Shown here: positions 10,201-64,000 of the stretch, one piece after another | Numbering within the stretch: the first letter of the stretch is position 1 | Layout: every line of letters starts with the position of its first letter | NCBI GenBank assembly: GCA_903813345.2 | Contig: CAIIXF020000003.1 | Coordinates: forward strand, 2,012,109-2,076,108 | Direction: 5' to 3' | Source: Owenia fusiformis | Lineage: Eukaryota; Annelida; Polychaeta; Sabellida; Oweniidae | DNA length: 64,000 nt | The notes under the pieces: generated by a model | Databases searched by the model: none | What the model saw: only the letters and a program-made list of their open reading frames with translations | What the model was told of the DNA's origin: nothing | Program-made: the position numbers and the translations under genes

Positions 10201-13200
10201 ATTTTTTATCCATATCAATGATTTACCTGACAATTTTAATTCAAAATGTTTTATTTACGCAGATGATACCTCGTTTACCAGTCTTTTACAGCTGAAACAG
10301 CAACTGAAATGAACAATGCCCTACAGGAGGATCTCAACCATATTTTTCAATGGTCAGAAGTGTGGAATCGAAATTTTAAAGTTACTGAAAGCAAAAAGTT
10401 GACCTTTTCCAATCCAAAGAAACGTGAAACTTTGACCATAGATCTTTCTCTTGGATATGAGATTATACCAAGAGTAAACAGCCATACCAACTTAATCCTA
10501 GACAGAAATCTCACTTTTGACAGAACTGAACTTGGCGCAAAAATAGACAAACGTATGAAACCTCTAAAAGCGCTCTGTCAGAAAATAAATGGAAAACATC
10601 TCGAAACAATCTTTCAATCTTTTATCCTGCCAATTTTTGACTATGGTGATATTTTATATTGCAAACACAACAAAATACAGTTATTAGATCGACTTTACTG
10701 TAAAGCCGCTTGCATTTGTTCAGGTGCTCTACATGGGATTTCGACAATTAAAGTGTTGAATAATTTAGATTTGCCAACATTAACAAAGATACGTTAATAT
10801 CACAGAAGTACTTTTATGTATAGGGCAAATAATAATATGCTGCCCTCGTATGTTCTTAACATATTTGAACCTCTCAAAAGAAATCATGCTGAGCTACACA
10901 ATTTCAAATAAATCCTCATATTCTAATAGATCTTGCATATCAAAAACACTTAATGGATGGAATAAGCTTTCACCTGAAATAAGAAATTAGCCTACCTTTA
11001 GTATATTCAAATCCAGGCTTAAAATAGATCTATTTAATGACGATGTTACAAAGTCATCAGAACTCTCCTCTCCGTTTCAAGAAAACAGTAATAATTTTCA
11101 ATAGAGTGCGTTGTGATCTCATGGTCAATTTTAAGGCTCGCCTCTACGCTCATAATTTCACTAATGTAAACTCCCACATCTGTCAGTGTGGAATGGATGG
11201 TGAAACAAACCAATCACGTAATTTGTCATTGTAATCTAAGTTCAACATTTTGGACAAAATTTGAAAATGAATTAAAATTATGAACAAAAAATATTCTACT
11301 AAATATAGATCACAACGAGACAAACTCTCCCTTATCCTCATTGGTGATAAAATAGTACCTAAAGGTGAAAACTTGAATATCCTCGAATGTATGTGTAGTG
11401 CCATGTTTTTTGAACGATGTAAAAATGACTAGGTTACCCAAACCACTGTAACCCTCCACAATTACAACCCCTATTTTAATGTCTGATTGAATACTGTTAT
11501 ATGATTTTCATCATATAACGTGGCTGATAATGCTGATGCCCAGCCACAAGCACATGTGCACTTGTTTTAATGCATTCTCTGTATAAATAAATAAAACAAT
11601 TTAATAAGAGCACAGTCATGTTTTAATAGGGAATATTGCACTCAACTTGAAGAACTGTACCTAGTCTAATTTTGAAGGTGCTAAAATAAAATTCCTCTCC
11701 GTTTCCATAATTTGGAAATCCACAGTGAATAATCTTTTTGTCGCCCATGATACCCCTGGTGTTAAGTACAGGATTTTCAATAGGATGGTGTCATATTGCT
11801 AATAATTTAGATGATGTACATGGCATGATTTGACATACCCTCTAAGAAGAAAAAAGGCAGGGGAGGATCTGGGAACCAACAAGGGGAGCCCAAAATTCTG
11901 GTCTAATAAAAAAAACGTCCGCATAAACCCAAAAATGGGCCCAAATTTTGAGGCCCATTTTCTTCAAAATTTGGCCTAAAATGAAAAAGTAAGGCCTTAG
12001 AAGGCCCATTTTTGACCAAAACGGCACACTTTTTGGGGCCTTAAGGCTTTTTGGCCCAATTTTTTTTCTTGGCCCACCCAGGGGAGGGGGGGGGTGTCCC
12101 CCAGATCTGCCAGTGAAAGGTGCTTGGTCAAATCAACATTTTAAATATTCTGCATAATTTTACTAAACTCTATGAGTCAAATGTTGTAAATAACTGGAGG
12201 AAATTAAATGAAAATATAATAAAGTTAGAAATGGTTAAAAAAGTGTCTCAAAAACTCACTCATGTGACGTTTTTTCTTTAAATGACGTCATAAATTACAA
12301 TTTGCGATTTTGATTATACACTTTAATACATTTTCCTCTATGGGAAGGTTATGATGTTAACTTTTTCATTCCATTGTAAACTGTTCATGACTGAGAGGTT
12401 TGAAAAAAAACATTAACACATTTGACAAAATGTCAAATACCCCGTAAATAGTAGTGGAATTATAGATGGGATTTAACCATTTTACTCCATAAACACATCT
12501 AAATTATCACCCGTCATGAATTGTCGTATGCATAAGCTAAGTTAAGGATATATCACATATTATGGGTGATATAGGAAGACTTAGGGTTATAATTATCTTA
12601 TTTCAAGATAATTGTTATAAATATCATCCCTACCCCTAATTTCGAACTGAGAAGAGACCTCTGAATTTGTAGAGTATAAGTCCTCAAGTTTAATCAAAAG
12701 ATGGTTCTATTAATCAGACTTTCATTTTGTTATCTGCCTTATCGTAACAATTGATTATCCGAAGTATAATGAGATTGAAAACTATTTAAAATGGCGTTGC
12801 CTTCTTAACGTCACAATTTCATTCCCACAGGATCTCCTTCTTTTGGCACATTGTTAGGTATTGGATTTTACATATTTATTACGTCAATTTATAGTAAATA
12901 GTCACACTCATGATGTTGTGACTTGTTCTTTTCAATCCTATCTACGAAAATCCTACATTTGGCCAAAGTGGACATACATTATATCTCTGAATGTTTGGTA
13001 TAATAACAATGAAAAAAGGTATGATTGATAAAGGACCGTGCAACTGTTTTTCTTTACAGAGGGTATGTTCTGTGATATTCATCTATTAACTTGGGTATTG
13101 TTTTTGGACAACCCTGAATTGAAAGAATCGACAGGAACTTTATTTTTTTAATCATTTAACAATCAGTTGTAACAATCAAATCATGAAAGAATTATATCAC

Positions 13201-16200: not shown

Positions 16201-18119
16201 CTAGCGTTTATCTCCTGAGTAAAATGTATTGGCCTAAGATCGCAATGTAGGATATATTCTGCTCTACTTCGAGATTCGGGTCGTGTCAATACACACTTTT
16301 TCGAGCAGATTATATCCTGTATTGAACTTCAAATCGGTCAATAACTTATTATGTATATGAATTAAATATTTGAAGATGCTGCGTTTCTCTATAGCCTGAC
16401 GATTATACTTCGATAAGGACAATAACTATAATGATTGAATGTGAATCTACATACAAGAACTACTTTCTGATTGCCACACTATGTTAAAAAGGCATTCATA
16501 CATGTATATATTGCATTTCTCCATAGCTTGACGATAATACTTCGATAAGGACGATAACCATAATGATTGAATGTGAATCTACATACAAGAACTACTTTCT
16601 AATTGCCACACTATGCTACAAGGGCATTGTGTTATTGCTGGGTGGATTCATAGTTTGGCCAGCACTGTAAGTGATATATATAGTTGGTAAAATATATCTC
16701 TTGAATTTTTGAAATTTTGAGGTAATTTAGTTTTTGTCCCCATTTGAATAAAGCTACATCGACATATAAAATTATAATTAAATTTTATTTTCAAGGTATA
16801 TGTCAATGAAGAAAGGATTTTCTCACTTTTCCGGTTTTACGTTAGCTGTCTTTATGAGTATTTTGTCCAGCATTGTAATGGCTATCATCTCGTTCTTGAT
16901 CCCAACTGAACCGAATGCCTTGTTCGCCATAACTGGATGTCTGATATTATTCACAACAATTCTGACCACTCTACTGATTTATATCTCAAAGGTAGCATAA
17001 TGCCGTTCAAAATTGTATAGATTCTACATAATTTATAAAGAAAAATGATGCAGCGGAGACATATACACGTTTATGTATTATGTATAATAGACTATAATTA
17101 CTAAATTAACTGTCATTTCTAATGAAAGTTAAATTCAGGATGTTAAAAACGGAAACCCTGTCGCCATTTTCCTCATATCTTTGTCATTTTAGGAAATTAA
17201 TTCCTGATTTTTAGCACATTGGTACATCTTTCAATCTTCTACCGACCTACAATATTTTATGACCATCAAATTGATAGTCATAACGTTAAAGCACTTTAAA
17301 CAACATGCTCCAGTGGAAAATATTGCACTTTCGTCAAACCTTCACCCATCATCCAAAATGTCCCTACCTAATTTCAACCTGTGATGATACACCAAAGAGT
17401 GTATGAGAAAAATCACAGAACAACTGCAGCCTTCAAAAGGAGATAATTCATGTCATTCGGGCCATACCTGCTGAAAAATGTAGTCAGATCATTAACAACC
17501 TGTTCAGATTTGCCAATAGCGCGATGGTGGTCACAGTGGGGTATCTTGTTCAAAGTGTTGTATCATTGTGACTATCAATCTGATGGTCATGAAATATGGT
17601 TAGCTGGTAGGAAACTGAATGTTGCACAGTACAAATGTGTAAAATATTAGGGATTAATTATTTAAAATGACAAGGATAAGATGAAAATGCAGGGTTTCAA
17701 TTTTTTAACCACATTGTATCATGAAAGGCCGTTGTTTAAAAAACATTTAGAAAGAATAAAACTATGTTTCCATTTTGAATCGACGTACAACGATGCAATG
17801 ATATAACCTGAAAATGCATTAGTATTTTGGAATTATTCTACCGGTTTTAATACCTTTATTTTAGATCATTGTCATTGCAAAGGGAGGAGATCCACTTTCC
17901 ATGAAGTTCTTTTCCCCAATCGGTGCAGCATTTGGTTTCTTGGACAACGTCGCGGGAGAAGGCCAAATGCCAGAATTGGGTGCGGATAACTCGGTCAACA
18001 TGCCTGAAGTTGCTCTTACTGCCGAGAAGACTGAACTAAGTGACAACAAGTCTGTTTTGCATGATGCTGACCACAACCACGACAAGATCGGCCTTGCTAA
18101 TCTCGGTGGTCTGAAATGA
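4293..18119 (+). CDS. GABA-B-receptor-like class C GPCR, 3' twelve exons
   Basis: Exons: 4293-4355, 4731-4937, 6407-6637, 7229-7295, 7426-7518, 8248-8398, 9625-9763, 13418-13516, 15768-15893, 16527-16666, 16796-16991, 17865-18119. All phases agree and give 588 residues to the TGA. The first three exons are the second half of the Venus-flytrap domain (GIRIIV..., LHELGLYGRHHV..., YDNIWAIGLAINETL), as in GABBR1/2. Exons 6-12 hold seven membrane helices: TM1 in 8248-8398, TM2 and the conserved extracellular Cys (DICM) in 9625-9763, TM3 in 13418-13516, TM4 in 15768-15893, TM5 in 16527-16666 and its junction, TM6 and TM7 in 16796-16991 and the start of 17865. The tail is about 80 residues, acidic and without an evident coiled coil. 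Donors are canonical GT; the weakest is GTTAGT after 8398, chosen because only it keeps phase. N-terminal signal peptide and first lobe are not seen. It is probably a lineage-specific paralogue; ligand and G protein are unknown. Confidence 0.9.
4498..4722. repeat. 73-bp tandem repeat, about 3 copies, abutting a receptor exon
   Basis: A 73-bp unit is repeated at exact spacing (marker CATTTCATAC at 4506, 4579 and 4652). Each unit carries a splice-acceptor-like TTTAATATTGCAG ending at 4541, 4614 and 4687. The array stops just before the genuine acceptor at 4730 of the receptor exon 4731-4937. Confidence 0.9.
5077..5914. mobile_element. Tc1/mariner-type MITE with long TIRs, TA target duplication
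   Basis: This lies in the intron between receptor exons 4731-4937 and 6407-6637. It begins CTCCTCAAAAAAGTTAAGG and ends with the reverse complement, flanked by TA on each side (5075-5076 and 5915-5916). The arms run about 250 bp inward (for example GGCAGAACC near 5292 against GGTTCTGCC near 5689). The TA duplication and TIR style are those of the IS630-Tc1-mariner superfamily. There is no transposase. Confidence 0.85.
6000..6160. mobile_element. Half copy of the 48884-49847 fold-back family
   Basis: ACACGCCCGATGATC, a G-rich run, then AAAGTTCAACAAATTTGGAAG and TTTTTCAAGAGAAAATTACAA parallel the left arm of the palindrome at 48884-49847. The inverted partner is missing here, so only one arm remains. 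Confidence 0.6.
7540..8045 (+). pseudogene. Degenerate tandem copies of receptor exon 7426-7518
   Basis: The 3' part of exon 7426-7518 (encoding TQERNLTMTQPPAVLLKSKG) and its donor are repeated in decayed form. Recognisable copies are at about 7628-7698 and 7745-7818, with shorter remnants near 7575-7605 and 7985-8040. Shared words include CCTGACTA, ACACCCTGCCGT and GTCAAAAGGTACACAT. Frames are shifted or stopped and no copy has a full acceptor-exon-donor set, so they are probably not used. The 7745 copy keeps the AGGTACAC donor context. Confidence 0.7.
7825..7936. mobile_element. Remnant of a hAT-like element (GCGGATCTGG family)
   Basis: TTGCGGATCTGGGGG at the left and CAGATCCGCCCCTG at the right form an inverted pair around a G-rich and C-rich core. 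Related elements are at 11840-12117 and 35996-36235. The GGCGGATC terminal sequence is widespread among hAT non-autonomous elements in animals. Confidence 0.55.
8440..8640 (+). pseudogene. Two extra copies of the receptor TM1 exon segment
   Basis: The segment encoding the TM1 end and its donor (GTTGATATACATCATTTATG then CACAACAAACACGTG) occurs three times: in the real exon (8248-8398), at about 8445-8525 (internal deletion) and at about 8535-8626. The third copy stays open (VLAGVGILLALIYTIYAF) but has no clear acceptor. The repeated piece includes intron sequence after the donor, so this is local DNA duplication, not retroposition. Confidence 0.8.
8640..9120. repeat. Inverted repeat in the receptor intron
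   Basis: 8752-8800 (containing TTTCTCCACTCGTGCACAGA) is mirrored at 8930-8972 (containing TCTGTGCGCGAGTGGAGAAA). The right flank (8985-9115) is an inverted copy of the repeat at 3481-3640. Open frames across this stretch lack splice sites and similarity and are treated as non-coding. Confidence 0.6.
9930..11600 (+). mobile_element. LINE (non-LTR retrotransposon) ORF2 fragment, decayed
   Basis: Two overlapping frames (9941-10312 and 10309-10797) give the reverse transcriptase middle and C-terminal parts: FDSMPDGLLLGKLKMYGF, GFTQGSILG and the catalytic YADD box (CFIYADDTSF). The first-to-second frame change and further stops after 10797 show it is dead. Further downstream, 11085-11430 keeps a C-terminal segment with ICQCG and a following His/Cys cluster, then a (TAAA)-rich tail near 11584. 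It resembles Jockey/CR1-like LINEs. It sits in the receptor intron 9764-13417, in sense orientation, and lacks the endonuclease. Confidence 0.85.
11840..12117. mobile_element. hAT-like non-autonomous element, GGATCTGG ends
   Basis: GGGGAGGATCTGGGAACC at the left and CCCCCAGATCTGCCAGTG at the right flank a core rich in GGCCCA/TGGGCC words. The core and ends match 35996-36235 in kind. The element is non-coding. Confidence 0.65.
12250..13080. repeat. Diverged duplicate of intron sequence, partner at 15215-15770
   Basis: Words occur in the same order and orientation in both stretches: ATGACGTCATAAATTACAAT (partner near 15237), CCATTTTACTCCATAAACACAT (partner near 15460), GGTTATAATTATCTTA (partner near 15569), and TTTTTCTTTACAGAGGGTA (12-13 kb copy near 13049, partner near 15732). 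They lie in different introns of the same gene. The last word looks like a splice acceptor, but neither copy continues into a credible exon. This is either a segmental duplication or two copies of one interspersed repeat. Confidence 0.6.
14701..15214. mobile_element. TIR element built of TCCCA/GGGGCA short repeats
   Basis: The ends are AAGCCCGGTATACA (14701) and TGTATACCGGGCTT (ending 15214). Between them almost every base belongs to a degenerate 7-10-bp motif (GCCCCAT, GAGTCCCA, GGGACTTC) in both orientations. A further internal end-like sequence, GTGTATGCCGGGCTT, closes at about 14903, so two copies may be nested or joined. Long frames on both strands arise from this low complexity and are not genes. 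The intron is 13517-15767 of the receptor gene. Confidence 0.75.
16391..16500 (+). pseudogene. Broken upstream copy of receptor TM5 exon
   Basis: It starts after its own acceptor (TTTCTCTATAG) and repeats the first about 100 bases of exon 16527-16666 at 132-bp spacing with few changes. It encodes YTSIRTITIMIECESTYKNY and runs into a TAA stop where the real exon has a Cys-Tyr-Lys. It has no donor. If the acceptor were used, the receptor would be cut off in TM5. Confidence 0.9.
17136..17718. mobile_element. Old mariner-like element, relative of 62843-63403
   Basis: The left arm (AAAACGGAAACCCTG, TTCCTCATATCTTTGTCATT) and right arm (TGACTATCAATCTGATGGTCATGA reversed against 17261-17290, then AAATGCAGGGTTTC) match the sharper copy at 62843-63403. 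The terminal CAGGGTGG has decayed. It lies in the last receptor intron. Confidence 0.7.
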
Positions 18120-19169: not shown

Positions 19170-19774
19170 TTAGCAAGTTTTGAAAATGACGTCATTTATA
19201 TTATGGACGCTTGTTGACAGACATTATATTAAGTTTGAGCTTATGATATACCAAATCAAAAATGTTCTATCCTCTGGTATATAATATGACATGTTTTCAA
19301 CAAGTAAATTAACATTTATCTTTGAAATATGAGTGTCCCATTTTTGGACCACCACCTTGTATACATAGGATTATGGTAAGTATGTACAAATAGCCATACC
19401 TTAATGGAAATTCATTATCTTGTACACATAGAATACAGTAAATAAAAAATGTTAATAAACCTTGCTTAAACACTGTCATAGATTGATTAATGCTAAAACT
19501 AAAGATTTATCAGATCTTCCATGGCCCAACTTCTAACATAAGCTCATTGTTCGCCAGTACACAACTAATCCTAATTACATCGAAAAGAATCGAAAATGAC
19601 CTCCCCTAAAGTGCACTGCATTAGTCTCATAAAACTACGACCTGCATTAAGCTGTTCCTAAGCTGAGGATGAGAACCAAATAATCTGATTGGTTTAACTT
19701 TGTTGCACATTCACTCAGGAGAAAAACTTACCCTCAGCCAACGAATCAAGACTTTTCTATCCCGGGCAGACATG
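19170..19774. other. No gene seen
   Basis: AT-rich intergenic sequence between the receptor 3' end and the minisatellite. I see no repeat ends, exon or RNA gene. Confidence 0.5.
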
Positions 19775-21430
19775 TTGACAACCTCTGTCTACATCTGTCA
19801 TGTTCACAACCTCTGACTACATTTGTCATGTTAACAACCTCTGACTACATCTGACATGTTCAAAACCTCTGACTACATCTGCCATGTTAACAATACCTGG
19901 ATCTTCCATGTTGACAACCTCTAACTACATCTGTCATGTTCACAACCTCTGACTACATCTGCCATGTTAACAATACCTGGATCTTCCATGTTGACAACCT
20001 CTAACTACATCTGTCATGTTCACAACCTCTGACTATATCTGACATGTTAACAATACCTGGATTTTCCATGTTGACAACCTCTGACTACATCTGACATGTT
20101 CACAACCTCTGACTACATCTGCCATGTTAACAATACCTGGATCTTCCATGTTGACAACCTCTGACTACATCTGACATGTTCAAAACCTCTGACTACATCT
20201 GCCATGTTAACAATACCTGGATTTTCCATGTTGACAACCTCTAACTACATCTGACATGTTCACAACCTCTGACTACATCTGCCATGTTAACAATACCTGA
20301 ATCTTCCATGTTGACAACCTCTGACTACATCTGACATGTTCAAAACCTCTGACTACATCTGCCATGTTAACAATACCTGGATCTTCCATGTTGACAACCT
20401 CTGACTACATCTGACATGTTCAAAACCTCTGACTACATCTGCCATGTTAACAATACCTGGATCTTCCATGTTGACAACCTCTAACTACATCTGTCATGTT
20501 CACAACCTCTGACTACATCTGCCATGTTAACAATACCTGGATCTTCCATGTTGACAACCTCTAACTACATCTGTCATGTTCACAACCTCTGACTACATCT
20601 GCCATGTTAACAATACCTGGATCTTCCATGTTGACAACCTCTGACTACATTTGTCAAGTTAACAACCTCTGACTACATCTGTCAAGTTGACAACCTCTGA
20701 CTACATCTGTCATGCTAACAACCTCTGACTACATCTGTCAAGTTGACAACCTCTGACTACATCTGTCATGTTAGCAACCTCTGACTACATCTGTCAAGTT
20801 GACAACCTCTGACTACATCTGTCATGTTAACAACCTCTGACTACATCTGTCATGCTAACAACCTCTGACTACATCTGTCAAGTTGACAACCTCTGACTAC
20901 ATCTGTCACTTTAGCAACCTCTGACTACATCTGTCAAGTTAACAACCTCTGACTACATCTGTCATGTTAGCAACCTCTGACTACATCTGTCAAGTTGACA
21001 ACCTCTGACTACATCTGTCATGTTAACAACCTCTGACTACAACTGTCATGCTAACAACCTCTGACTACATCTGTCAAGTTGACAACCTCTGACTACATCT
21101 GTCACTTTAGCAACCTCTGACTACATCTGTCAAGTTAACAACCTCTGACTACATCTGTCATGTTAGCAACCTCTGACTACATCTGTCAAGTTGACAACCT
21201 CTGACTACATCTGTCATGTTAACAACCTCTGACTACATCTGACATGTTGACAACCTCTGACTACATCTGTCATGCTAACAACCTTTGACAACATCTGACA
21301 TGCTAACAACCTTTGACTACATCTTACATGTTCACAACCTCTGACTTCATCTGTCATGTTAACAACCTTTGACTACATCTGTCATGTTAACAACCTTTGA
21401 CTACATCTGTCATGTTAACAACCTCTGATT
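19775..21430. repeat. Higher-order minisatellite (28-bp unit; 80-bp and 196-bp orders)
   Basis: The basic unit is 28 bp, ACAACCTCTGACTACATCTG plus TCATGTTA. In 19.89-20.62 kb the array is organised as an exact 80-bp higher-order unit (marker CAATACCTGG at 19891, 19971, 20051, 20131, 20211, 20291, 20371, 20451, 20531, 20611). After about 20640 it becomes simple 28-bp units, with a 196-bp (7 x 28) order shown by GTCACTTTAG at 20905 and 21101. It decays at 21280-21430. There is no coding. Confidence 0.97.
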
Positions 21431-24549: not shown

Positions 24550-26981
24550 TTATCTTGTATGTAAATATTCGCCTGGAATAACAGTACCGAGAGAATCATC
24601 TTTAGATTTATTTTTGATATATTCTATATCCTGTTTAACCATTGCATCAAGATCGTAAGCGTCTCCTTTAAGCAACAGTCTCTTCCTGACACAGTTCCAA
24701 ACGATTTTGACAGCACCTATTATCACCCACGGTATGATTCCTACCAAAGTGTACATCATTGGCATTGTTGTCGCCATGTCGGATTCAGGTTGTGATAAGC
24801 TGATCCCGATCATCACTAGTGCCAACTGAAGATTCTGCATGCCCGTCTCTAAAGATATTGTCGTGATCTTTGGTAGCTCTTGCTTAAATATGGCCGCGAC
24901 TGTCGCCCCGATAATACTACCTAGTACCGGGGTTAGGAAACAAGCCAGAAAGATTTGCCAAGTGACGAGAGTGAAAATGTAGTGAAAGGCGAGTGGCACT
25001 AGTGTTGCGAAAGCAATGGCGATCAGAGCGATCCATGGACGAACAAGTTTTACAATAATTGCGCCAACATTTGGCTTGAAGTGATTGACGATCACTCCAA
25101 CGGCAACGGGGAGTACTACAACAGCTACCGATGCGAGTACGTTGACGATGGGAATATGGACACGGACGTCTGCGACGTAGAGTCTGCTGAACACCCACAT
25201 CCAAAATGGTGTCATACCTAGATCACAAAATAGTAATTAGTAAGAAAGAATGTTTGTTTAAATGTAACTCCTTATCCGGTCTGATTCAGACCACGCCCGT
25301 AGCCAGGGGGGGTTCGCAGGGTTCGGGCGAACCCCCCCCTGGCCAAAAATTCTTTCAAAATCATGCAGTTTTCACCATTTTGAGCACTTGTCAAGTGATT
25401 TTGTCCATATTTGAGCCAAAATTGTCAAATGTGAACCCCCCCTGGAAATTTTTGAAAAATGAACCCCCCTTGGCAAATCCTGGCTACGGGCCTGCAGACT
25501 ATCTATTGATAGTTGATACCATAGTCTTCCCTTGCTTAACAATGGGATGCATTATACACTGGTATTACATAAAGCAATACATTGTGAAATAGTGAAACGG
25601 ATTGTCAGTATACCTACATGATACCAGTATGTATACCTGCATGTAAAAAAGGATGCATGCATAAATCATATCGAAAGCTAGCTTACTTAATGCAAGTCCT
25701 TGCTTAATGTAAATGTCGAGGAACACTTTTACTTACACAGACTATCGTCTTGGATACCATAGCAAGAATATTGATCTAGGCTTACGACCTGCTTTCAATT
25801 CCAATAGGTATTTAATTGTTTCAAAAGGTAAACCATGCATAATGAAACTTACCAAGCGCTCCAACTGTACTTATAAATGTCATGGCTATGCTAAGGTCAA
25901 GGTCGGCATCGAGTAAAAAGGCGAAAATATTGCTTGCTCCGCCACCGGCACTACTTCCTATAGCAAGTAGTCCAATACTCATCACGTTGTCAAGTCTGAG
26001 CAGTTGAGATATACCAACAGATAACTAGAAATACAAGAACATGCGTTTGTAAAACACCCTCCACAAAATTGTCCCATATTAATATGTTGACCTATGTTAC
26101 TTCTATTTCGGATATTGCCAGTTTGGTTTACTCATGATATAGTTAAAATGGAGGTAGGAGGGACAATTAATTATTGTGTTTTCTCGTATTTATCAAATAA
26201 AGCGATGAAATGTATATAAACTGAGCAATTGTGAATGATCCAAAACACCACAGGCAAACTGTACGAGTACTAGTATAGGCCGATAAAATTCAACAGGGTG
26301 AATTTCTGAAGCTACAATTAAAAATAGTTTCATTACCGGTGCCATGCACAAAAACTGGCAGCAAAATCCTATAGCAGGCGCAACTGGACGCCTTAAAATC
26401 TCCTTGATGGCATTTAGTTGGATCTTGCAACCGAAACCAAAGTTTTGAACCAAAATCATCGTTCCAAGAACGACTGCGAATATGATATCAATAGCACCTC
26501 GTTTGCGAACCACCAAAACAGTGTAACTGCTCGGTAAGGATATGTTTTCATGTTTTATGGTGTCTCCGATGCGTTCTATATTCAAGGTGGTCCTACCCAG
26601 TCGTCGTCCAACAACGGTGACATTCGCTGAAGGTTCTGTATCAGACAGAACGATCGAATCAGCATCTTTAACAACTGCTATGACGTCATTCCGTGACGTT
26701 ATACGTACATGCAAATTAACGGAACCATCTAAATCCGTTACAGTGTCCTCGGTTTTGAAATTGTATTTGTTCTCGTAATCATCACTAATATCAAACGTAG
26801 TCGAACAAGTAAGGTTGAGAAATAAATTCCTCGACGTACCCTCTGTTAGGTCTGTCATACGCAAGGGTTCGTACACCACGACACATCCCCCGTATGCCTC
26901 CTCATTGAACAATGACAGGGTCCATGTTAAAACGACTAGGTCAGTAAATCTCATTCTAGGTTGAGTTCCACAAAGAAGCAT
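24550..26981 (-). CDS. SLC10A3/A5-like: SLC10-family Na+/bile-acid-type transporter, SLC10A3/A5-like
   Basis: Three exons: 26981-26337, 26024-25853, 25217-24550. Phases agree (0, then 1) and give 494 residues if the first ATG is used; an ATG ten codons in (MRFTDLVVLTWTLSL) starts a likely signal peptide. Residues about 25-165 form an extracellular beta-rich, N-glycosylatable domain (VVGRRLGRTTLNIERIG), as in vertebrate P3/SLC10A3 and SLC10A5. The membrane part follows: GAIDIIFAVVLGTMILVQNF, then exon 2 with the GSSAGGGASNIF signature, then exon 3 with GMTPFWMWVF and the ETGMQN motif typical of SLC10 transporters. The C-tail is charged, about 40 residues. Length fits the family (SLC10A3 is about 480). 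Human SLC10A3/A5 substrates are not established, so substrate is left open. It is divergent from the gene at 29611, 2.6 kb away. The intron after exon 2 holds a MITE (25291-25494). Confidence 0.93.
25291..25494. mobile_element. MITE, ends GCCCGTAGCCAGG
   Basis: GCCCGTAGCCAGG at the left and CCTGGCTACGGGC at the right. The core holds GGTTCG and GAACCCCCC words and an ATGCAGTTTTCACCATTTTG segment. Shorter copies are at 38594-38764 and 59481-59635. It lies in the SLC10 intron; a plus-strand frame across it is an artefact. Confidence 0.85.
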
Positions 26982-27786
26982 ATACTCCTTTTTAAACCCT
27001 TAACTCATACATGTATATATATTATCTCTTATCTGGAGACAAATACCCAGGTGTTAAATATTTACAAGTTAATAATAAACTGTTCATGTACTGTATTTCT
27101 CTAAACGGGTATACTCTTGATAATCGCGTACAGTTTAACCTAGCTGAATAGAAAGATACACAAAAATATACAATTCATGAGCGGGTCACACTTTCAAAAC
27201 TATATATTTCCAACAAAGGGTTTACAATAAAGGTCGTATGTTGTCATTCCTTTTTAAAGTGCACGTGTCGTGCAGTTGTCGACGTGGACGAGTAATAAGC
27301 AAGTAGTAAAATAGAATTCAAATTTTTAAACTACAGTACCTAAATACAATTCAACACACAAAGTCTACAATGGTAGACCTAATGAGATAAACAATATAAT
27401 GTCAGAGTAAACTCGGATGTTTTGGCATTTTATGTAATATTGAATGACGATTCAAAATACGTGTCTCAAAATTTCTTTGGTAAATTGTCAAGAAATTTTC
27501 GCTTAAAGTATATGATTTCCAATATAGAATGCACACGTATCGATGACAGGGGACTACAACATTTTAACAATGTTTCATACAAATTAAATTAAAAATGAAC
27601 TTTTCTGATTCATGGGAAAAGACTCAGTTTAATGTGATCAGCAAATCGATTGTACAAAATACGACTTTTGATGTTACGTAATTGTTTTATTTTGACATAA
27701 ATCTTGCTTTGTTTAAGATTAAAATTTAAAAATACGCCAAGGTAACGCTCGAATTTCATGTCACAATAACCTTACATTATTTGAGA
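26982..27786. other. Upstream region of the SLC10 gene, no other gene
   Basis: It should contain the SLC10 promoter (minus strand). An E-box-bearing segment GCACGTGTCGTGCAGTTG is at about 27261. No TATA box in a convincing position and no exon are seen. Confidence 0.4.
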
Positions 27787-37285: not shown

Positions 37286-37999
37286 CTAATCCGTCTCTTT
37301 TCCTTTGATACTAGTAAATATTGATTTGGATGTGTCCATATCACTTTCCTCTGAAACCTCTTTGGAACTTTCAACCGAATGTTTTGAAATTTTGCCTGAA
37401 TTTTCAGTGGTTTTAACTGAATCTGCAGAAGTCACATCATCATACTGTCTCTTTGTTTTCGTGGATTTTTTTGTCTCAACTTTGCGACGTTTTTCTTCAG
37501 TGGCATTTTCCACATCATCGTCATTTTTCTCATCATCATTTTTCTTATTGTCATCATTAGTCTTATCATCGTTTTTCCTATCATCATTATTCTTATTATT
37601 CTTATCATCATTAATTGTGAATTGTTTAAAGTCGATAACAGAAGTGTGGTGGCCCTGAACATTTACTCCAGACGCATCATGTTTCAATGAATCGTCAGTT
37701 TCGTTGTCTGTAATGAACGCCCGAACCATTTTTAGCTTTTTCATTGTTTTTCCCACATACTGGACAGACTTTTCCCCTTCCTCATCTTTAGTCTGTTCAA
37801 AAAACAAAGAAGTTCCAACAATATCCTCAAACTCGCCAACAAAGATATATTGGCCAAGCTGTAGAATAGGCTTTTCAGAGTCAATTCCAATGACCTTGAA
37901 CTGTTCTAATAGATCTGGTTTCAACCAATCACGGCCCATGACCCCTGAGAGTTCAACCGTGAGGTACATTTCATCTTCCTCAATGTCTTGTGCTGCCAT
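37286..37999 (-). CDS. GTF3C6: General transcription factor 3C subunit 6 (TFIIIC 35-kDa subunit)
   Basis: One uninterrupted 237-codon frame starting AAAGATGGCAGC (good start context). Residues about 10-100 match the TFIIIC subunit 6 domain: VELSGVMGRDWLKPD, then IGIDSEKPILQLGQYIFVGE, EDIVGTSLFFE and the TMKKLKM block; human GTF3C6 has the equivalent GIDTERPILQ, GEYEDTLGT and TMKKLSM. The product helps TFIIIC bind Pol III promoters (tRNA, 5S) in the nucleus. From about residue 125 it is low complexity, Asn/Asp/Lys-rich, then a Lys-rich basic stretch (EEKRRKVETKKSTKTKRQ, a likely NLS) and a Ser-rich acidic tail. The coding repeat is an ATC/ATT-type trinucleotide tract. The gene is intronless although its vertebrate counterpart has several introns. 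It is 275 bp downstream of the MED10 stop on the same strand. Confidence 0.93.
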   Translation of the reverse strand: MAAQDIEEDEMYLTVELSGVMGRDWLKPDLLEQFKVIGIDSEKPILQLGQYIFVGEFEDIVGTSLFFEQTKDEEGEKSVQYVGKTMKKLKMVRAFITDNETDDSLKHDASGVNVQGHHTSVIDFKQFTINDDKNNKNNDDRKNDDKTNDDNKKNDDEKNDDDVENATEEKRRKVETKKSTKTKRQYDDVTSADSVKTTENSGKISKHSVESSKEVSEESDMDTSKSIFTSIKGKETD

Positions 38000-38274
38000 C
38001 TTTCAATGGTGAGGATATTTGTTTTGTTTAGATTCACCTATCTTTTGTGTTTTACATCTAAGGTCTCACTTTAGTCAAATATAAATATAATTGCTTTACT
38101 TTGCAATAATGTCTTCTATTACGCTTTTTTGTCAGCTATCACGCTAGCTCATCTGTCAACTTTTTCTTAAGTCTGTTATCCAGTACACTTCTCTGCTATA
38201 AGAAACAGGACCCTAGTCTGTTATCAATTACGCTTATCTGATATCTATCACCCAGTACGTTAATCTGCTAAGCA

Positions 38275-41200
38275 TTACACCAATCTATCGTCACCACGAA
38301 CAGCTCTGTATTTTGCCATTTCATTCGGGAATGTTTTGCTGAGCTCTAAGATCAGGAGAACTTTGAATTTCTGGAAAATAAAGCAAGTAATTATGCAAAT
38401 GAATAAATATGCCTTGAATTCACAACCTCGCGGTTATGGCAACAGCGTCTAGCCCAGCATATTCAATACTCTTGCTCGGCAACCCCAAAAAGGGTGTTTC
38501 ATCAGTCAATCTGATTAGAGGGAACAAGTGTTAATGCTCCAATACAATTGAAGTGAATTCATGCATACATTCCCAGGCACAATTAGCTCAACTGCAGGCC
38601 CGAGACAGGATTTGCAAAGATGGGTGTTCAGTTTTCAAAATTTTCCAGGGGGGGTTCACACTTGACAATTTTGGCCCAAATATGACTAAAATCACTTGAG
38701 AAGTGCTAAAAATGGTGAAAAACTGCATGATTTTGAAAGAATTTTTGGCCAGGGGCTACGGGCCTAAATGTCCTTAAGAACCCAGAGCAGATGATAACCT
38801 CTGCAACTAAAACCTCAGAGAGTGATTCATGAATGAATAATGAATGAACAAAAGCAATGGGGTTCATACGTCCCGAACTCACAACCGCATGATTATGACA
38901 TCAGCGCCTAGACCGGTCGGCCAACTTGACAACTCAAAAAGGTTGTTTCATCAGTCAATCTGATCAGAGGGAACATTAGTGTTAACGATCAAACTGCACA
39001 CAGAGGTAACTTTCATACACACATTCACAAGATACATTCACACAAACAAGATACATTCTCACAAACAAGATACATGTACATTCTCTCACACCATAATTAG
39101 ATCAAATGTCCTTCAGATGTTTTTGAAGGAATATGAAACAAAAAAGAAAACAAAAGAGAGTATGATATCTTGATTCTAAATTAAGAGATGCTTACAAGTA
39201 CAGGGTGGTCCAAAAAAAGTGAACCCCTGCAACAGGCTATATTTTTCTTAATACATGCATGAATTGGCTCATATTATCACATGTTGTAGAGAAAGGTCTA
39301 AAATTTTGGTTGATGCCATAATTTATTCTCAGTCTTAAATTTTGAAGAAATTACAAGCGTTTATCAAACATGCCTGGAAATTAGATATTGTACAAAATTT
39401 TACAAATGTGATTCAAGGAAATCGTTGAAACACATTGGATGATCTTAAACAGCTTTCAGTTAGAGATACAAATTTAAAACCCTACCATATGACAAAAGGG
39501 ACACTGTTCAAGCAGAAAACACATTTCACACTTTCATTGATCATTTTGAAGCATTTTTAACTGTTCAACAGTTTCAGGGGTATGTTACCTACACCAACAG
39601 TTAGAGGGGGCCTCTTATGGAAGGGAGTTGCCCCCTGTGACCAGGAATCTGATAACCCCTTTATCAAATATCTTTAAAAAATCAAAACAAAATCCAATAT
39701 CCAATGTTTTGAGCCATAAATCATTAGAATTGGTCCATGATTTGAAGATATTGACATTTCAAGATCATATAGGGGTATGTTCATGATTTCACTGGAAAAT
39801 GTTTTCGTCTGTGGAAGCTTAGCACATCTCTTTGGATCACAATAACTTTGCAACTAACAAATGTAGGATGCTAGTTTTAAGCCATAATGTGCAGAATTTA
39901 AAATTGAACAAAGTCAGAAAATATTAGTTCTTTAAAGGGTGACGCATATCGTTTAGCAAATCGAACGCTCGTTTCTGGTGTTGCTCACCGTTTAGTATAA
40001 AAGGCCCGATCCCGGAATAATACTCAAGGGTTCACAGGTTCGAGGTCGTTGTGTCAACACCTCTAACTGTTATATAGCATAAGTATATTATAGATTGTCA
40101 CACATTTATAAAAGGGTGAATTTTATTTTGACATATCAATTCCACATTTATGGGTGAAGTTTCAGGATCTTCTATTTGTGTATAATAAGGAAAAATTGGC
40201 ATCTAAATTTCCCCATAACGTAATAGCACACAGCTTGGCATATGAAATATCCTACAAATGAAACAAAGCAAGACAAACTGGTTTCTAATACAAGAATTTA
40301 TATTGGCTGTTGTACGTGTATTATTTGAACGCAATCACTCTTTGGATAACGTTTTCAAAATCATTATAAACGGATTACTTTATCTCAAAGACAATTTCAA
40401 TAAACTGGATTTTACAGAACTCCCCTTATTTCTTAAAAATGGACTGATCCAGTTGATTCGCCTGGAGCCGCCATATTGTTTTTATACGGGATGCTAATCA
40501 AAACCCTTTAAGACTGCAGCTTATAAAATTCCCAGGGGGAAAGGTGTTAAAGGGTTGAAGAATCGCGGATATTGAAAATCACAATTTGTCCATTTTCAGT
40601 AATGTTTGGTTAGGGCTTATAATTTCTGCAAAGGACGATTCTCGGTTTGGAGAACAGTCTCCTGGGCTAATAATTTTTTTAATGAAAAATATAGAAATAT
40701 TACCCAAATTAAACTATGAATATTCAAAAGAGGACATTTAGATCTACAAGATGTAAAAATAACAAATTGGTCTGAAGCAGGGATAATGCTCGATTTGACC
40801 GATTCAATAAAATACAAGTCTCGATTTGGGGAAAGAAGTTCATCAGTGTACTGCGCTAATATTTTTTTGAGAAAAATCTAGAAATATTACCCAAATTAAA
40901 TTATGACTACAAATCTATATTATGTAAAAAAAATCAAATTTGTCCGAAGCAGGGATAATGCTCATTTAGATTGATGAACTTCGTTCTCCAAACCGAGAAT
41001 CGTCCTTTCAAGACTAAGAAAAATGTATGGCCCCAACATAAATTTTAGACCTTCCTCTACAACATGTGAAAATAAAAAAGAATTCCTGCAAGTAATAAGG
41101 GAAATATGGCCAGTTGCAGGGGTTCACTTTTTTTTGGACCACCCTGTATATTGTGCAGTTACATTATATTATTATTGAAAGGCACTTGAAGTTCTTTAGA

Positions 41201-59246: not shown

Positions 59247-62200
59247 ATGAGCCGTATAAGGCTTCCACGTCAGAAGTCACTCATAATGCCAGAGGTGAAA
59301 AATCCATTTGTGCACAAAATCCACCTCACATGGCTAGACAAAATCAGGGTAGGTTTCGTGTTAATGATTTTCTAAAGTTTGTAATTTTTAATAGGGATAA
59401 ACTGGGAGATACCTAGATGTGCATGCTATTAGACAAATCTTCTTGATCATTTCTTCGGGTCCGTGTTTCAAGATAGCTTACAGGCCTGTAGCCAGGATTT
59501 GCAAAGGGGGGTTCACATTTTGGAAAATTCCAAGGGGGTTCACTTTTGACAATTTTGGTCTAAAAATGGCCAAAATCACTTAAAAAGTGCTCAGAATGGT
59601 GAAAAACTGCATGATTTTGAGAATTTTTGGCCAGCAATTCAAGTTGTGATGTGGAAAAATGGCGAACATTCGATTTGAAATTTTATGATTATGACATGAC
59701 CCCTATACAGCAGTAAAAAACATGCAGGGATTTATCTTTGGACGAAGGCCACGACATAGTGGCCTATAGAAGAAGGTAAATCCTAACACTTACCTGAGTC
59801 TCTAGCCAATTCTTGGCTAGAAGTAATTCCATCTGGAACACTGTGAATTATTGTAATGTTTCTAGCCGGGGTTCAATAAATTTAAGTAATATTCTAAAAA
59901 CCGTCATGTTAATATTTCATGAAATGAAATGGTAACAGCTTCTCTTGTTGATGAGATATTGAACATTTTCATTTAAAATAGAAGTAATCCCATTTTTTCT
60001 GTTCTCAATAAGCTTACATATAGAGGGCAGCCTAGTAGACAGGAAAATCTGAGAAATTTTATTTCATTATGAAAAAGAATAAGTATCATGGGAGGTAGAC
60101 GATTCTATGGACTGTGTGTAAAGATCAATGAAGGTGAGGTTTCTATGTTTACATCAATTAAAATATCCCGGCCGGGCAATTTAAAACAACAAAGAGTTAG
60201 TGGCTATAGAAAATGGCAACCTTAAACATTCCTCCACAGAAATTGCCCTGATCTTTCTGGTGATCTCCCTCTTCAGGTCAACTATGGGGTTAAGGGTTTG
60301 TTTCATACAATGATCTTTCTAGTACCTCAGAGATAAAATTTTGAGGGTTCATGTCAGACGAATGTGGTACCCATTCAGTTGCGGACTTTGCCCGTAGAAT
60401 CCAGGTGTGCCTATTAAGGAATGGACAACATTCAGAGTGCATCATGTAACACTCATAAAAGTGTATCTAGTTGAGCTAGTCGTCTGAAACTTATTGTCGA
60501 GTCTTGTTAGGCCATAAGAAGTAGACTCTCTGTTTTGCGTCCTGGCAAAATCCAAATCATACACGGGTACAGGGAAAACAAACACAAACTCAAGATAAAA
60601 CACAAACTAGTGTTTGCTGAGGAACGTATACATTTTAATGGGCATAAAAAGGGATGACATACCAATTTGCAGTGATTACAAACACATATCTATACATTTT
60701 ATACAATATATTTAAACATAGCTATTATTCAGGGCAAGAATAAGAAAATTCACAATGTATGACAAAGTAATCAACAACACTGTCAATTTTGACGCACATC
60801 AAATTATCCACCATTTCGCCTGATTCTGATTGAACGAAATGTGACCAGGTACTGTCAGACCCTTGTAATTGTTATTTGGATGTGTTTTTTTTTCTGATTT
60901 ACTCAAAATCGTGCAAGCTAGGGGACACAAAACAAAGAATCGTAACTTTTATGGCCTTACAGACTTATGCAACATTATGTGGTTGGCATATTCTGTGTGA
61001 CCCTATAGATAACAATGATGCATGTTGGTTTTTAGATTGCACTGATGACAGTAACTGTGTTTCCGATACGTGTGATACTAATAGTTTTACTGCTATTGCT
61101 CGCTTGGCCATTGGCAGCTGTTGCGATTGCATGTCGCAATCAAGAAGGGAAAAAAGAGCCTATGGCCGGTTGGAGGAGGTAAGAGACCCCTTTAGTTAAT
61201 TGCCAGCATATTTCTTTTTGAAGTCAGAGACCCTTTGAATACATTACAAATCATATTTCATTCAAGGGTAAGAGTCACATTAAATACATTTACCTTTGGA
61301 GGTTAAAACTCCTTACAAAATAACGTATCATATTTGAAATCACCAGTTATATTTCTTTATTGCATATTATGCCATTGCCTATTACTAATCAGTTCAATTA
61401 AATACCTGTTTTTGGACATATTTTTGCACATAATTTTTTGATAACGTTGATACATGACTTGAAACTTATTGCTTGCCTTGCATTTTCTAATTCAATTATC
61501 TTTAATGCACTAAGAAATGGTTGCTTCATTAGGAAATATTTAGTCATAATTAGTATTTTCAATGGATTTGTATGAGATGCATTTTTCTTATTTTCTAGGC
61601 CATTTATAATTGAACTTTATTCCACATATCATATTTACTTTTTCCTTCCTTTTCAGTATTTTAACACTTACAATCGTCACAGTTTGGCGATTGGTGTTCT
61701 TTGTAGGGGGGTTCCATTGGATATCTCTGACGGGAAAATTGGCACCATTGGAAGAAGCACCCGTTTTAATTGCAGGGCCACATAGTTCGTATTTTGATGC
61801 CCTGCCGCTAGTTATATGCGGTGGCCCTAGCATCGTCACTAAGTCCTCCAATATTAGCATTCCAGTGTTCGGAAGTATGTTTTTCAGCAATGTTGGACGT
61901 TCATTTCTCTATGCTATGTTGCATGTTGAAAACTTTTCTGGCAGTGGAAATTATTTCGTTTGATTTCTTTGGCTAATATATATTTTTTGCTAACTTGTTT
62001 AGTGAAGTGGAAAAACTTTTCAGTTCAGTTCAGTTTAATATACTCCATCCATACAGTATACTCCATATTAATAAGAACTGGCCAGATACGGTAATTTATT
62101 TTCATTTGAATTTCACAATTATTATAGCATTTTCTGAAAGTTGAGAAAATAAAGTAGTCTATGTATGCTCACTATCTTGGTTGGCGCACCTTATAGTCTA

Positions 62201-64000
62201 ACATATTTTTGAATTAGTATTTTGCATTATACTCTCGTTAAAATCACTGTTTTTATAAAATTATAGCGTTGAAAGAGCTAGAAAAATACACTGTTTATTT
62301 ACTGCATTAGTATTTATTCTTATTCCACACAATATCATAGAATGTACATCATCAAATTTACTTAATTTTCTCTGCCAGAATCGGAATGCATGTAAATGTA
62401 GCTTTAGTCCCATATGAGATGTATACTGTACTTATTTATTATGTGTACCAATTTTACAACTGAAATGTGAGAACAATTTTACCAAGATTCATAATCAACA
62501 CAATGTTTCTCAAAAAAATAATTTAGAACACAGTTTTATCCTTCCTGAAAATCCTTTCTTTGTCATGATTTCTCTGATTTTTCTTGACAAGTCAAACAAT
62601 TACTTCACATTTCTGTTTTGTTATTGGTGCACACAATCCCCCTGGGCTTATAATGGAATGATTATTAAATATTGTTAATATTATTTTTTCTTCAATTTTC
62701 TTTAGTTTTAGGTGTCACCAATAGGTGGGTGACTCACCTGGTGTATTTGATATCCATGTTTAGGGCCATTTATGAATATATATGTGTCATGTTTAATAGT
62801 AGAATGTACATGTATGTAGAAGTGTATACCATGTTGATCATACAGGGTGGTAAAAAAAACGGAAACCCTGCATTTTCCTCATATCTTTGTCATTTTAAGA
62901 AATTACTCCCTGATATTTCACACATTTGTAAATCATTCAATTTCCTACTACCCTACCATATTTCATGACCATCAGACTGATAGTCACAATTTTACAGCAC
63001 TTTGAACAACATGCTTCAGGTTTGGCCATCATCGCGCTGGAGGCTAACCTGCACAGTTGTCAATGATCCAAATGCATTTCTCAGCAGGTTTGGCCTGAAT
63101 GATACAGATGATCTCACTTTTGATGTCTGCAATTGTCCTAAGGTCTTATACACTCTATCTCTGCCATATTCCAATAGGTAGGGACATTTTGGATGACATG
63201 TGCAGGTTGGTCTACAGCGCAATAGTGGCCACTGGGAATGTTCTTTAAAGTGCTGTAACACTGTGACTATCAATCTGATGATCATGAAATAGGGTAGGCA
63301 AATAGGAAATTGAGTGATGTACAAATGTGCAAAGTTATTTCTTAAAATGACAAAGATATTAGGAAAACGGTGTTAAGGTTTCCAGTTTTTTTTGACCACC
63401 CTGTACTTAAAATTGAAAGAAAATTCAATGAAATGAAGTATTTATTGGACATTTTAGAGAAAACATCTATGATATAAACATGGCACTCATATACGACCCT
63501 AGAATAAAATACATGTTCAGGGCCAACCACAAAATGGTGGAACAGAAAGGAATGAAGTCAAAATTTGGTCATCAGAATTAGAGAAATCTAGTTTTATTGA
63601 GCCAATTGGTGAATTTCTAGATTTTATTTGAAATTACAAAGATGATGCTTTAATTTTTTTGTTAAAATCTCTTTTCCAAATACTCTGCAACTTTATTTGG
63701 TAATTTCTCACTAATGACATTCTGTTTGCGACCAGCCCTCATTCGAATTCCAATGACCTTATTTGGATTAAGTGAATATATATGCTCCTAACAACTTGCT
63801 TGCTTTGCATCAAATGTTGTATGACATACGTAGCTATTAGTGCACATTTTTTATTAGAGCCATGCGTGTTCCGTTGCGATTCATGGGCCGAACTATGTTT
63901 TTCATCTTTGGATTCCACTGGGTGCGGGTCAAAGGCATCCAAGCTAGCGCAAAAGAGGCACAAATCCTGATCAGCGCCCCTCATTCGTCGTTCATGGATG
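59247..64000 (+). CDS. LPCAT1/2-like: Lysophosphatidylcholine acyltransferase (LPCAT1/2-type), 5' exons
   Basis: Exons: 59247-59348, 61036-61178, 61657-61874 (3a), and an alternative 63858-64000+ (3b). Phases 0 and 2 agree. Exon 1 encodes MSRIRLPRQK and the conserved NPFVHKIHLTWLDKIR (human LPCAT1 has NPFVHELRL). Exon 2 encodes the membrane anchor, IALMTVTVFPIRV then LLLLLAWPLAAVAIA. Exon 3a encodes VFFVGGFHWISLTGK and the catalytic HX4D motif as PHSSYFDALP. The enzyme transfers acyl groups from acyl-CoA to lysophospholipids in the ER and at lipid droplets. The later blocks (EGT motif, EF-hands) lie beyond the window. Exon 3a ends in phase 1 at a GTATGT donor. No exon 4 was found before 64000. 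Confidence 0.93.
59481..59635. mobile_element. Truncated copy of the GCCCGTAGCCAGG MITE
   Basis: CAGGCCTGTAGCCAGG at left, then GGGGGGTTCACATTTTGG and GGTGAAAAACTGCATGATTT as in 38594-38764. The right terminal repeat is missing. LPCAT intron 1; the remainder of this intron (59640-61030) shows nothing else I can support. Confidence 0.8.
61179..61656. other. LPCAT intron 2, no features
   Basis: AT-rich intron with a GTAAGA donor and TTTCCTTCCTTTTCAG acceptor; nothing else seen. Confidence 0.6.
62843..63403. mobile_element. Mariner-like element with transposase remnant, TA flanks
   Basis: CAGGGTGGTAAAAAAAACGG opens it and a TTTTTTTTGACCACCCTG mirror closes it, flanked by TA (62841-62842, 63404-63405). 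Arms of about 190 bp pair. The core, read on the minus strand, contains RDRVYKTLGQLQTSKVRSSV then LLRNAFGSLTTVQ, resembling the last 45 residues of mariner transposases (Asp-Arg-Val-Tyr...Leu...Ile). The catalytic part is gone. Older copy at 17136-17718. Confidence 0.8.
63858..64000 (+). CDS. Second LPCAT catalytic exon (3b), cut by the window end
   Basis: After TTTTTTATTAG, the frame in phase 2 gives AMRVPLRFMGRTMFFIFGFH, then WVRVKGIQASAKEAQILISA and PHSSFMD, open to the last base. This parallels exon 3a (VFFVGGFHW...PHSSYFD) and human LPCAT1 (RTMWFAGGFHRVAVKG...APHSSYFD). The HX4D catalytic pair (His, Asp) is kept. It enters in the same phase as exon 3a, so it could replace 3a after exon 2. 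Alternatives: first visible exon of a tandem LPCAT paralogue, or the true exon 3 with 3a as a duplicate. Confidence 0.88.

What the first reader, a model, noticed from the sequence alone, without database searches (positions are those of the whole stretch)
61657..64000. Duplicated LPCAT catalytic exon: candidate mutually exclusive exons 3a and 3b
Two intact exons 2 kb apart encode alternative versions of the same acyltransferase block, each with an HX4D motif (HSSYFD in 3a, HSSFMD in 3b). Both take the same entry phase (2). They differ strongly in sequence, and 3b is closer to the human LPCAT1 pattern around RTM-F-GFH and VKG-QA. Swapping the active-site segment could change acyl-CoA or lysolipid choice from one gene. 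I know of no described LPCAT with this arrangement. Tandem paralogy is the main alternative.
Basis: partly seen in the sequence, partly recalled or inferred. Interest (0 to 1): 0.78.

Follow-up and report, generated by a model that had tools for sequence, protein, structure and literature searches.

The report
Twin catalytic exons in one LPCAT gene
An animal gene for a membrane-lipid enzyme carries two different versions of the exon that encodes its active site, and the reading frame allows only one of them per working message, so one gene may make two enzyme variants; this still has to be seen in RNA.

Summary
Confirmed as DNA anatomy. The window holds the 5' part of one LPCAT-type lysophospholipid acyltransferase gene: exon 1 (59247-59348), exon 2 (61036-61178), exon 3a (61657-61874) and a second exon 3b (63858 to the window end, cut). 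3a and 3b align without a gap over 48 residues (18 identical; 0 of 20000 shuffles reach the score). Both enter in phase 2 and keep motif I (HX4D). Codon positions 1 and 2 are conserved between them, position 3 is at chance level: an old duplication under protein-level selection. Joining 3a to 3b shifts the frame and hits a stop. No further exon 2, 3 or 4 was found between them, which speaks against a tandem gene; one weak exon-1-like stretch at 62526-62591 is disclosed, without in-frame ATG or matching donor. Best explanation: mutually exclusive exons that swap the catalytic segment. This is inferred, not shown: no transcripts, genome or relatives were at hand, and 3b's end and exon 4 lie outside. 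Such exons are known in other lipid enzymes (ACSL6); my literature searches listed no LPCAT case.

The parts
59247..59348 (+). Exon 1, coding part: 34 codons from ATG to ...LDKIR, with NPFV; ends in phase 0 at a GTAGGT donor
   Evidence: frame and GT donor; NPFV lines up with recalled human LPCAT1/2/4 (tblastn E 0.46 for LPCAT1, 0.099 for LPCAT4, not listed for LPCAT2). The start codon is inferred.
61036..61178 (+). Exon 2: hydrophobic N-terminal segment ending ...AGWR plus two bases; enters in phase 0, ends in phase 2
   Evidence: AG and GTAAGA sites; tblastn with recalled LPCAT1/2/4 E 6.9e-9, 4.0e-9, 5.1e-7. Next-best match of exon 2 in the window is a low-complexity repeat at 37550-37612, E 0.009.
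61657..61874 (+). Exon 3a: catalytic segment with HX4D (HSSYFD) and a lysine aligned with PlsC K105; enters in phase 2, ends in phase 1
   Evidence: tblastn with recalled LPCAT1/2/4 E 1.6e-11, 2.9e-11, 1.2e-13.
61875..63857 (+). Intron between 3a and 3b (1983 nt); no exon 2, 3 or 4 copy found; holds a MITE-like element
   Evidence: tblastn of the window; exon 1, 2 and recalled exon 4 queries against 500 dinucleotide shuffles, + strand.
62843..63403 (.). Dispersed MITE-like element with long inverted repeats, TA on both sides, lying in the 3a-3b intron
   Evidence: three pairs of inverted arms 82-94% complementary; second copy at 17145-17706, 76% identical over 565 columns. End read from the sequence.
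63858..64000 (+). Exon 3b, cut by the window end: alternative catalytic segment with HX4D (HSSFMD); enters in phase 2
   Evidence: tblastn with recalled LPCAT1/2/4 E 1.4e-7, 1.9e-7, 1.7e-7.
62526..62591 (+). Weak exon-1-like stretch (EHSFILPENPFFVMISLIFLDK), judged not a functional exon
   Evidence: 22.3 bits, 0 of 500 shuffles of the intron reach it, whole-window E 0.017; no in-frame ATG upstream within its open frame and no phase-0 donor at its end.

Best explanation
One LPCAT1/2/4-type gene carries a tandem duplicate of its third coding exon, and the two copies are used as mutually exclusive alternatives: exon 2 is spliced to 3a or to 3b, and then to a shared exon 4 beyond the window. By homology exon 3 encodes the start of the acyltransferase alpha-beta domain: a probable helix, the stretch that leads to motif I, the catalytic His and Asp, and (seen in 3a) the lysine that aligns with the acceptor-phosphate lysine of bacterial PlsC. 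Each isoform would have its own catalytic dyad and part of its own substrate pocket, with shared membrane anchor and shared motifs II-IV. Frame enforces the choice: 3a turns entry phase 2 into exit phase 1, so a 2-3a-3b message is frame-shifted and stops inside 3b. Shown: duplication, shared entry phase, splice-site dinucleotides where visible, old protein-level constraint, frameshift on joint inclusion, no second exon 2 or exon 4 found in the gap. Inferred: that both exons are spliced in, that 3b ends in phase 1 and joins the same exon 4, and that the isoforms differ in substrate choice.
For: Ungapped 48-residue alignment with 18 identities, score 106 against a maximum of 50 in 20000 shuffles. 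Codon-position identity 22/48, 30/47, 10/48 for positions 1, 2, 3, with 12.1, 13.5, 11.1 expected from composition (Fisher p 1.5e-4 for positions 1+2 against 3). Same entry phase. Joint inclusion gives a stop in 3b. Exon 2 and three recalled exon 4 queries score no better than shuffles in the gap (255, 462, 379 and 161 of 500 shuffles reach the observed score). 3a fits recalled LPCATs nearly end to end (best E 1.2e-13) and ends at a GT. The profile matches PlsC 5kym at E 2.1e-9; by my count along that alignment H124, D129 and K144 of the 1-2-3a protein fall on H84, D89 and K105. Exon 3 of mouse Lpcat1 also holds motif I: the rd11 insertion c.420-421 is in exon 3 (PMC7949107 passage) and mouse motif I starts at H135 (PMC4280512 passage), so D140 ends at nucleotide 420.
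Against: No transcript could be examined, no genome is held and the two scans for relatives found none. 3b is cut, so its length, donor and exit phase are unknown. 3b's acceptor is weak: 12 of 18 pyrimidines and only 15 AG-free bases before it, against 17 of 18 and 56 for 3a; the exon 2 acceptor is also modest, 11 of 18 and 25. The weak exon-1-like stretch in the gap is what a decayed second gene start might look like. Pfam gave no hit to either 1-2-3 protein, though a recalled LPCAT2 fragment cut at the same place gave none either and LPCAT4's stayed below the cut-off.
Confidence: 0.62

Rival explanations
1. Two tandem LPCAT genes, or a partial gene duplicate of exons 1-3, or two loci joined by misassembly: 3a and 3b belong to different transcription units.
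For: Tandem gene copies are a known false positive for exon-pair predictions (PMC3228551 passage). An exon-1-like stretch lies in the gap at 62526-62591 with 22.3 bits, reached by 0 of 500 shuffles.
Against: Only one exon 1 and one exon 2 that could work were found in 64 kb, and no exon 4 of a first copy in the gap. The exon-1-like stretch has no in-frame ATG, no phase-0 donor, and a whole-window E of 0.017 with several queries tried. The window has no N.
Confidence: 0.15
2. One copy is no longer used: 3a or 3b is a recently silenced exon or is included only as an error.
For: 3b's acceptor is weak. No expression data.
Against: Both frames are open as far as visible, both keep HX4D, splice dinucleotides and family residues, and codon positions 1-2 against 3 show long protein-level constraint. 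Seventy-two open codons at intron composition: 111 of 20000. Recent loss is not excluded.
Confidence: 0.12
3. Alternative ends rather than mutual exclusion: 3a leads to a short isoform by intronic polyadenylation, or 3b starts from an internal promoter.
For: Read-through of 3a stops about 29 codons on and an AATAAA lies at 62148. 3b has an in-frame ATG near its start.
Against: 3a has a GT donor right after the family's PxxG, although the tblastn rows run 5 to 17 nt past it. A truncated form would lack motifs II-IV. 3b has an acceptor in the same phase as 3a.
Confidence: 0.11

Closest known systems
ACSL6 and ACSL1 fatty-acid gate-domain exons (PMC1543647, abstract and outline seen)
   Same: A lipid-metabolism enzyme in which a mutually exclusive exon pair swaps a short substrate-gating segment.
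   Different: A ligase, not an acyltransferase; the swapped gate motif differs only slightly between the two exons, whereas here the segment with the catalytic His and Asp is duplicated and identity is 18 of 48.
LPCAT1/LPCAT2/LPCAT4 (LPLAT8/9/10) of mammals (PMC8753187, PMC4280512, passages seen)
   Same: NPFV start and N-terminal hydrophobic segment (against recalled sequences); motif I in exon 3 (mouse Lpcat1).
   Different: Mammals have three genes. The words splice and alternative splicing have 0 occurrences in the main text of the LPLAT review. Here one gene carries two exon 3 versions about as far apart (local score 106) as the recalled human paralogues are from each other (88, 103, 118).
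Mutually exclusive exon clusters as defined for WebScipio and in the human survey (PMC3228551, PMC5740500, passages seen)
   Same: Neighbouring homologous exons, same entry phase, exon length not divisible by three so that joint inclusion shifts the frame.
   Different: No transcript support here; 3b's length and donor are not visible.
Thermotoga PlsC, 5kym
   Same: Profile match E 2.1e-9; by my count H84, D89 and K105 align with residues encoded by exon 3a.
   Different: Bacterial LPA acyltransferase; used only as a structural guide.

Membership tests
Mutually exclusive exon pair | Sequence homology between neighbouring exons | tested here: met
   18 of 48 identical; score 106 against at most 50 in 20000 shuffles
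Mutually exclusive exon pair | Same reading frame at entry, compatible acceptor | tested here: met
   Both phase 2, both after AG
Mutually exclusive exon pair | Similar length, donor and same exit phase | tested here: inconclusive
   3a is 218 nt with a GT donor; 3b is cut after 143 nt at the window end
Mutually exclusive exon pair | Joint inclusion is non-productive | tested here: met
   2-3a-3b shifts frame and stops in 3b
Mutually exclusive exon pair | Not part of tandem gene copies | tested here: inconclusive
   No exon 2, 3 or 4 copy found in the gap, but one weak exon-1-like stretch and no view past 64000
Mutually exclusive exon pair | Junction reads for each exon, none productive for both | not testable with these tools
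   No RNA data on hand
LPCAT1/2/4-type acyltransferase | Motif I HX4D | tested here: met
   HSSYFD in 3a, HSSFMD in 3b
LPCAT1/2/4-type acyltransferase | NPFV start and N-terminal hydrophobic segment in exons 1-2 | tested here: met
   against recalled human sequences; that these define the family is also recalled
LPCAT1/2/4-type acyltransferase | Motifs II-IV and EF-hands | not testable with these tools
   They would lie beyond the window end; none found inside it
LPCAT1/2/4-type acyltransferase | Pfam acyltransferase domain (PF01553) | tested here: inconclusive
   No hit; the same cut of recalled LPCAT2 also gave none and LPCAT4 gave 12.9 bits against a cut-off of 23

The most novel reading that the evidence does not exclude
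An LPCAT gene that swaps its catalytic dyad and acceptor-phosphate region by mutually exclusive splicing, with the two versions as far apart in sequence as the vertebrate LPCAT1, LPCAT2 and LPCAT4 paralogues, so that exon duplication does within one gene what gene duplication did in vertebrates.
Probability: 0.38. Interest if true: 0.66.

Novelty: new member of a known kind. Interest (0 to 1): 0.52.

Why it matters
If both exons are used, one gene makes two acyltransferases with different active-site segments on the same membrane anchor. That would be a natural domain-swap experiment for which residues near motif I set acyl-CoA and lysolipid choice, and a link between splicing control and membrane phospholipid make-up.

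Tried and rejected
Whole-genome look-up: none held. Relatives of the 1-2-3b protein in genome contigs: 94 pattern stretches, none confirmed. Relatives of the 1-2-3a protein in viral contigs: 14 stretches, none confirmed. These collections hold prokaryotes and viruses, so the nulls say little about animals; I left the other 7 viral scans and the second genome scan unused. PDB by single sequence: 0 matches for each of the two proteins. Pfam on single exons and on the two 1-2-3 proteins: nothing; one search gave exon 2 one base out of frame, so its null for that exon means nothing. Structure prediction of 3a with 3b as its only partner: mean pLDDT 49.4, pTM 0.29, a helix at residues 2-24 and little else, not used for a fold search. 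A five-sequence tree of the exon 3 segment is unresolved, supports 51 and 52, so I do not say whether 3a and 3b are sisters. Rfam and tRNA scans of the window: 0 hits each.

Considered and rejected: 3a as a poison exon, because it keeps a reading frame and catalytic residues. The exon-1-like stretch as a second first exon, because it has no in-frame ATG and no phase-0 donor; its codon-position identity is 14, 16 and 3 of 22, but such a bias is expected for any stretch picked by protein similarity, so it proves nothing. The same caution applies in part to 3a/3b, whose score however is far outside the shuffles. Competing RNA structures were not tested: the intron after 3b is outside the window and there are no relatives. 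Literature: 10 of 10 searches. bear on LPCAT or acyltransferase isoforms; none of their listed titles or abstract starts describes mutually exclusive LPCAT exons. The three papers that held both terms were seen as listings only. Searches showed 10 of 24 and 10 of 182. The library holds open-licence papers only.
Full report
What is there. The end of the window holds the 5' part of an LPCAT-type gene on the + strand. Exon 1 (coding part 59247-59348) gives 34 residues with NPFV and ends in phase 0. Exon 2 (61036-61178) gives the hydrophobic N-terminal segment and ends in phase 2 before GTAAGA. Exon 3a (61657-61874, 218 nt) enters in phase 2 and leaves in phase 1 before GTATGT. Exon 3b (63858-64000, cut by the window end) also enters in phase 2. 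Start codon and exon limits are my reading of frame and splice dinucleotides, not annotation.

Is it more than chance. 3a and 3b align without a gap over 48 residues with 18 identities. The best local score is 106; the highest of 20000 shuffles was 50. In tblastn against the whole window each finds the other at E 5.5e-10 and 1.9e-10 and nothing else below E 0.1. Between the two, codon position 1 is identical in 22 of 48, position 2 in 30 of 47, position 3 in 10 of 48; composition alone predicts 12.1, 13.5 and 11.1 (Fisher p 1.5e-4 for positions 1+2 against 3). Silent sites are therefore saturated while the protein is kept, which marks an old duplication under protein-level selection. Some bias of this kind follows from choosing a pair by protein similarity, so I rest mainly on the score.

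Which family. With human LPCAT1, LPCAT2 and LPCAT4 as recalled from memory (none full-length, LPCAT4 cut the shortest), tblastn places exon 2 at E 6.9e-9, 4.0e-9 and 5.1e-7, exon 3a at 1.6e-11, 2.9e-11 and 1.2e-13, and exon 3b (cut) at 1.4e-7, 1.9e-7 and 1.7e-7. Exon 1 is weak (0.46 for LPCAT1, 0.099 for LPCAT4, not listed for LPCAT2), but its NPFV lines up. At E 1 or below no row shows exon 4 or later, save that two weak antisense rows (E 0.80 and 0.39) touch the end of exon 3 and, in one case, the start of exon 4. The next-best match of the window's exon 2 is a low-complexity repeat at 37550-37612, E 0.009. Pfam gave nothing for the two 1-2-3 proteins; as a control, a recalled LPCAT2 fragment of the same span gave nothing and LPCAT4's 12.9 bits, below the cut-off of 23, while a longer LPCAT2 piece reached 53.3 bits. 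So that null reflects the cut.

What the exon does. A profile of five sequences (two from the window, three recalled) finds the PlsC structure 5kym at E 2.1e-9; the other 6 of 7 rows have E 0.62-0.99 and I treat them as chance. By my count along the printed alignment, H84, D89 and K105 of PlsC fall on H124, D129 and K144 of the 1-2-3a protein. K105 was suggested to contact the acceptor's phosphate (PMC6688108 passage), and motif I His and Asp are needed for activity in mouse LPCAT1 (PMC4280512 passage). The four AGPAT motifs surround the modelled acyl-CoA pocket of LPCAT1 and LPCAT2, and hydrophobic tunnels of PlsC act as rulers for chain length (PMC8753187 passages). A swap of this exon would thus replace the catalytic dyad and part of the pocket. 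That it changes substrate choice is inference. In 3b the region of K105 lies outside the window.

One gene or two. A pair of tandem genes needs exons 4 onward of the first and exons 1-2 of the second in the 1983-nt gap. Exon 2 and three recalled exon 4 queries score no better there, on the + strand, than in dinucleotide shuffles (255, 462, 379 and 161 of 500 reach the observed score). Against my reading, an exon-1-like stretch at 62526-62591 scores 22.3 bits, which 0 of 500 shuffles reach and which has E 0.017 in the whole window. Its open frame has no ATG before it and there is no phase-0 donor at its end, so it cannot serve as exon 1 as it stands. It may be chance or a remnant; if a remnant, the duplicated block was larger, and 3b could still be used only by splicing from the one exon 2 that was found.

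Why one or the other. 3a turns phase 2 into phase 1, so 2-3a-3b is read out of frame and stops inside 3b. In the human survey 377 mutually exclusive clusters (60%) contain exons not divisible by three (PMC5740500 passage). The criteria of WebScipio are similar length, conserved splice sites and frame, and homology (PMC3228551 passages); only 90 of 16180 non-exclusive exons of the fly X chromosome shared these features. Here homology, entry phase and acceptor are met; length, donor and exit phase of 3b cannot be seen. The intron between them is 1983 nt and holds a MITE-like element (62843-63403; second copy 17145-17706), which makes steric interference between the two exons unlikely. The 3a acceptor is strong (17 of 18 pyrimidines, 56 AG-free bases) and the 3b acceptor weak (12 of 18, 15 bases), which suggests 3a as the default and 3b as the regulated choice; that is a guess.

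Age. The 3a-3b local score (106) is in the range of the recalled human LPCAT1, 2 and 4 among themselves (88, 103 and 118); identities counted without gaps tell the same (18 of 48 against 16, 17 and 20), though these undercount LPCAT2, which needs a one-residue gap. The tree of this segment is unresolved. Either the exon pair is very old or one copy evolved fast.

Novelty. Mutually exclusive exons are a known kind, also in lipid enzymes: ACSL6 and ACSL1 swap a gate domain (PMC1543647, abstract). Of my ten literature searches, six bear on this point and listed no LPCAT with such a pair; the library lacks most subscription journals, and genome annotations of animals could not be searched. I rate it a new member of a known kind. 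The organism was not identified; that it is an animal is inferred from the gene structure and the LPCAT match.

Noticed in passing
window 62843-63403 and 17145-17706: MITE-like element of about 560 bp with long inverted repeats and TA on both sides of the first copy; two copies about 76% identical. A 26-nt match to its end lies at 39196-39221.
   Followed up: partly
window 24553-25236 and 26196-26999, - strand: Open frames with the sodium/bile acid symporter domain (PF01758, E 2.1e-9 and 0.0029, the second below the Pfam cut-off).
   Followed up: no
window 37289-38002, - strand: Open frame with the TFIIIC subunit 6 domain (PF10419, E 6.1e-19).
   Followed up: no
window 9941-10309, + strand: Reverse-transcriptase fragment (PF00078, E 8.7e-6, below the Pfam cut-off), probably a retroelement remnant.
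   Followed up: no
window 19771-21428: Tandem array of about 20 copies of an 80-bp unit, 92% matches.
   Followed up: no
window 62526-62591: Exon-1-like stretch between 3a and 3b, above all 500 shuffles of the intron but without start codon or donor.
   Followed up: partly
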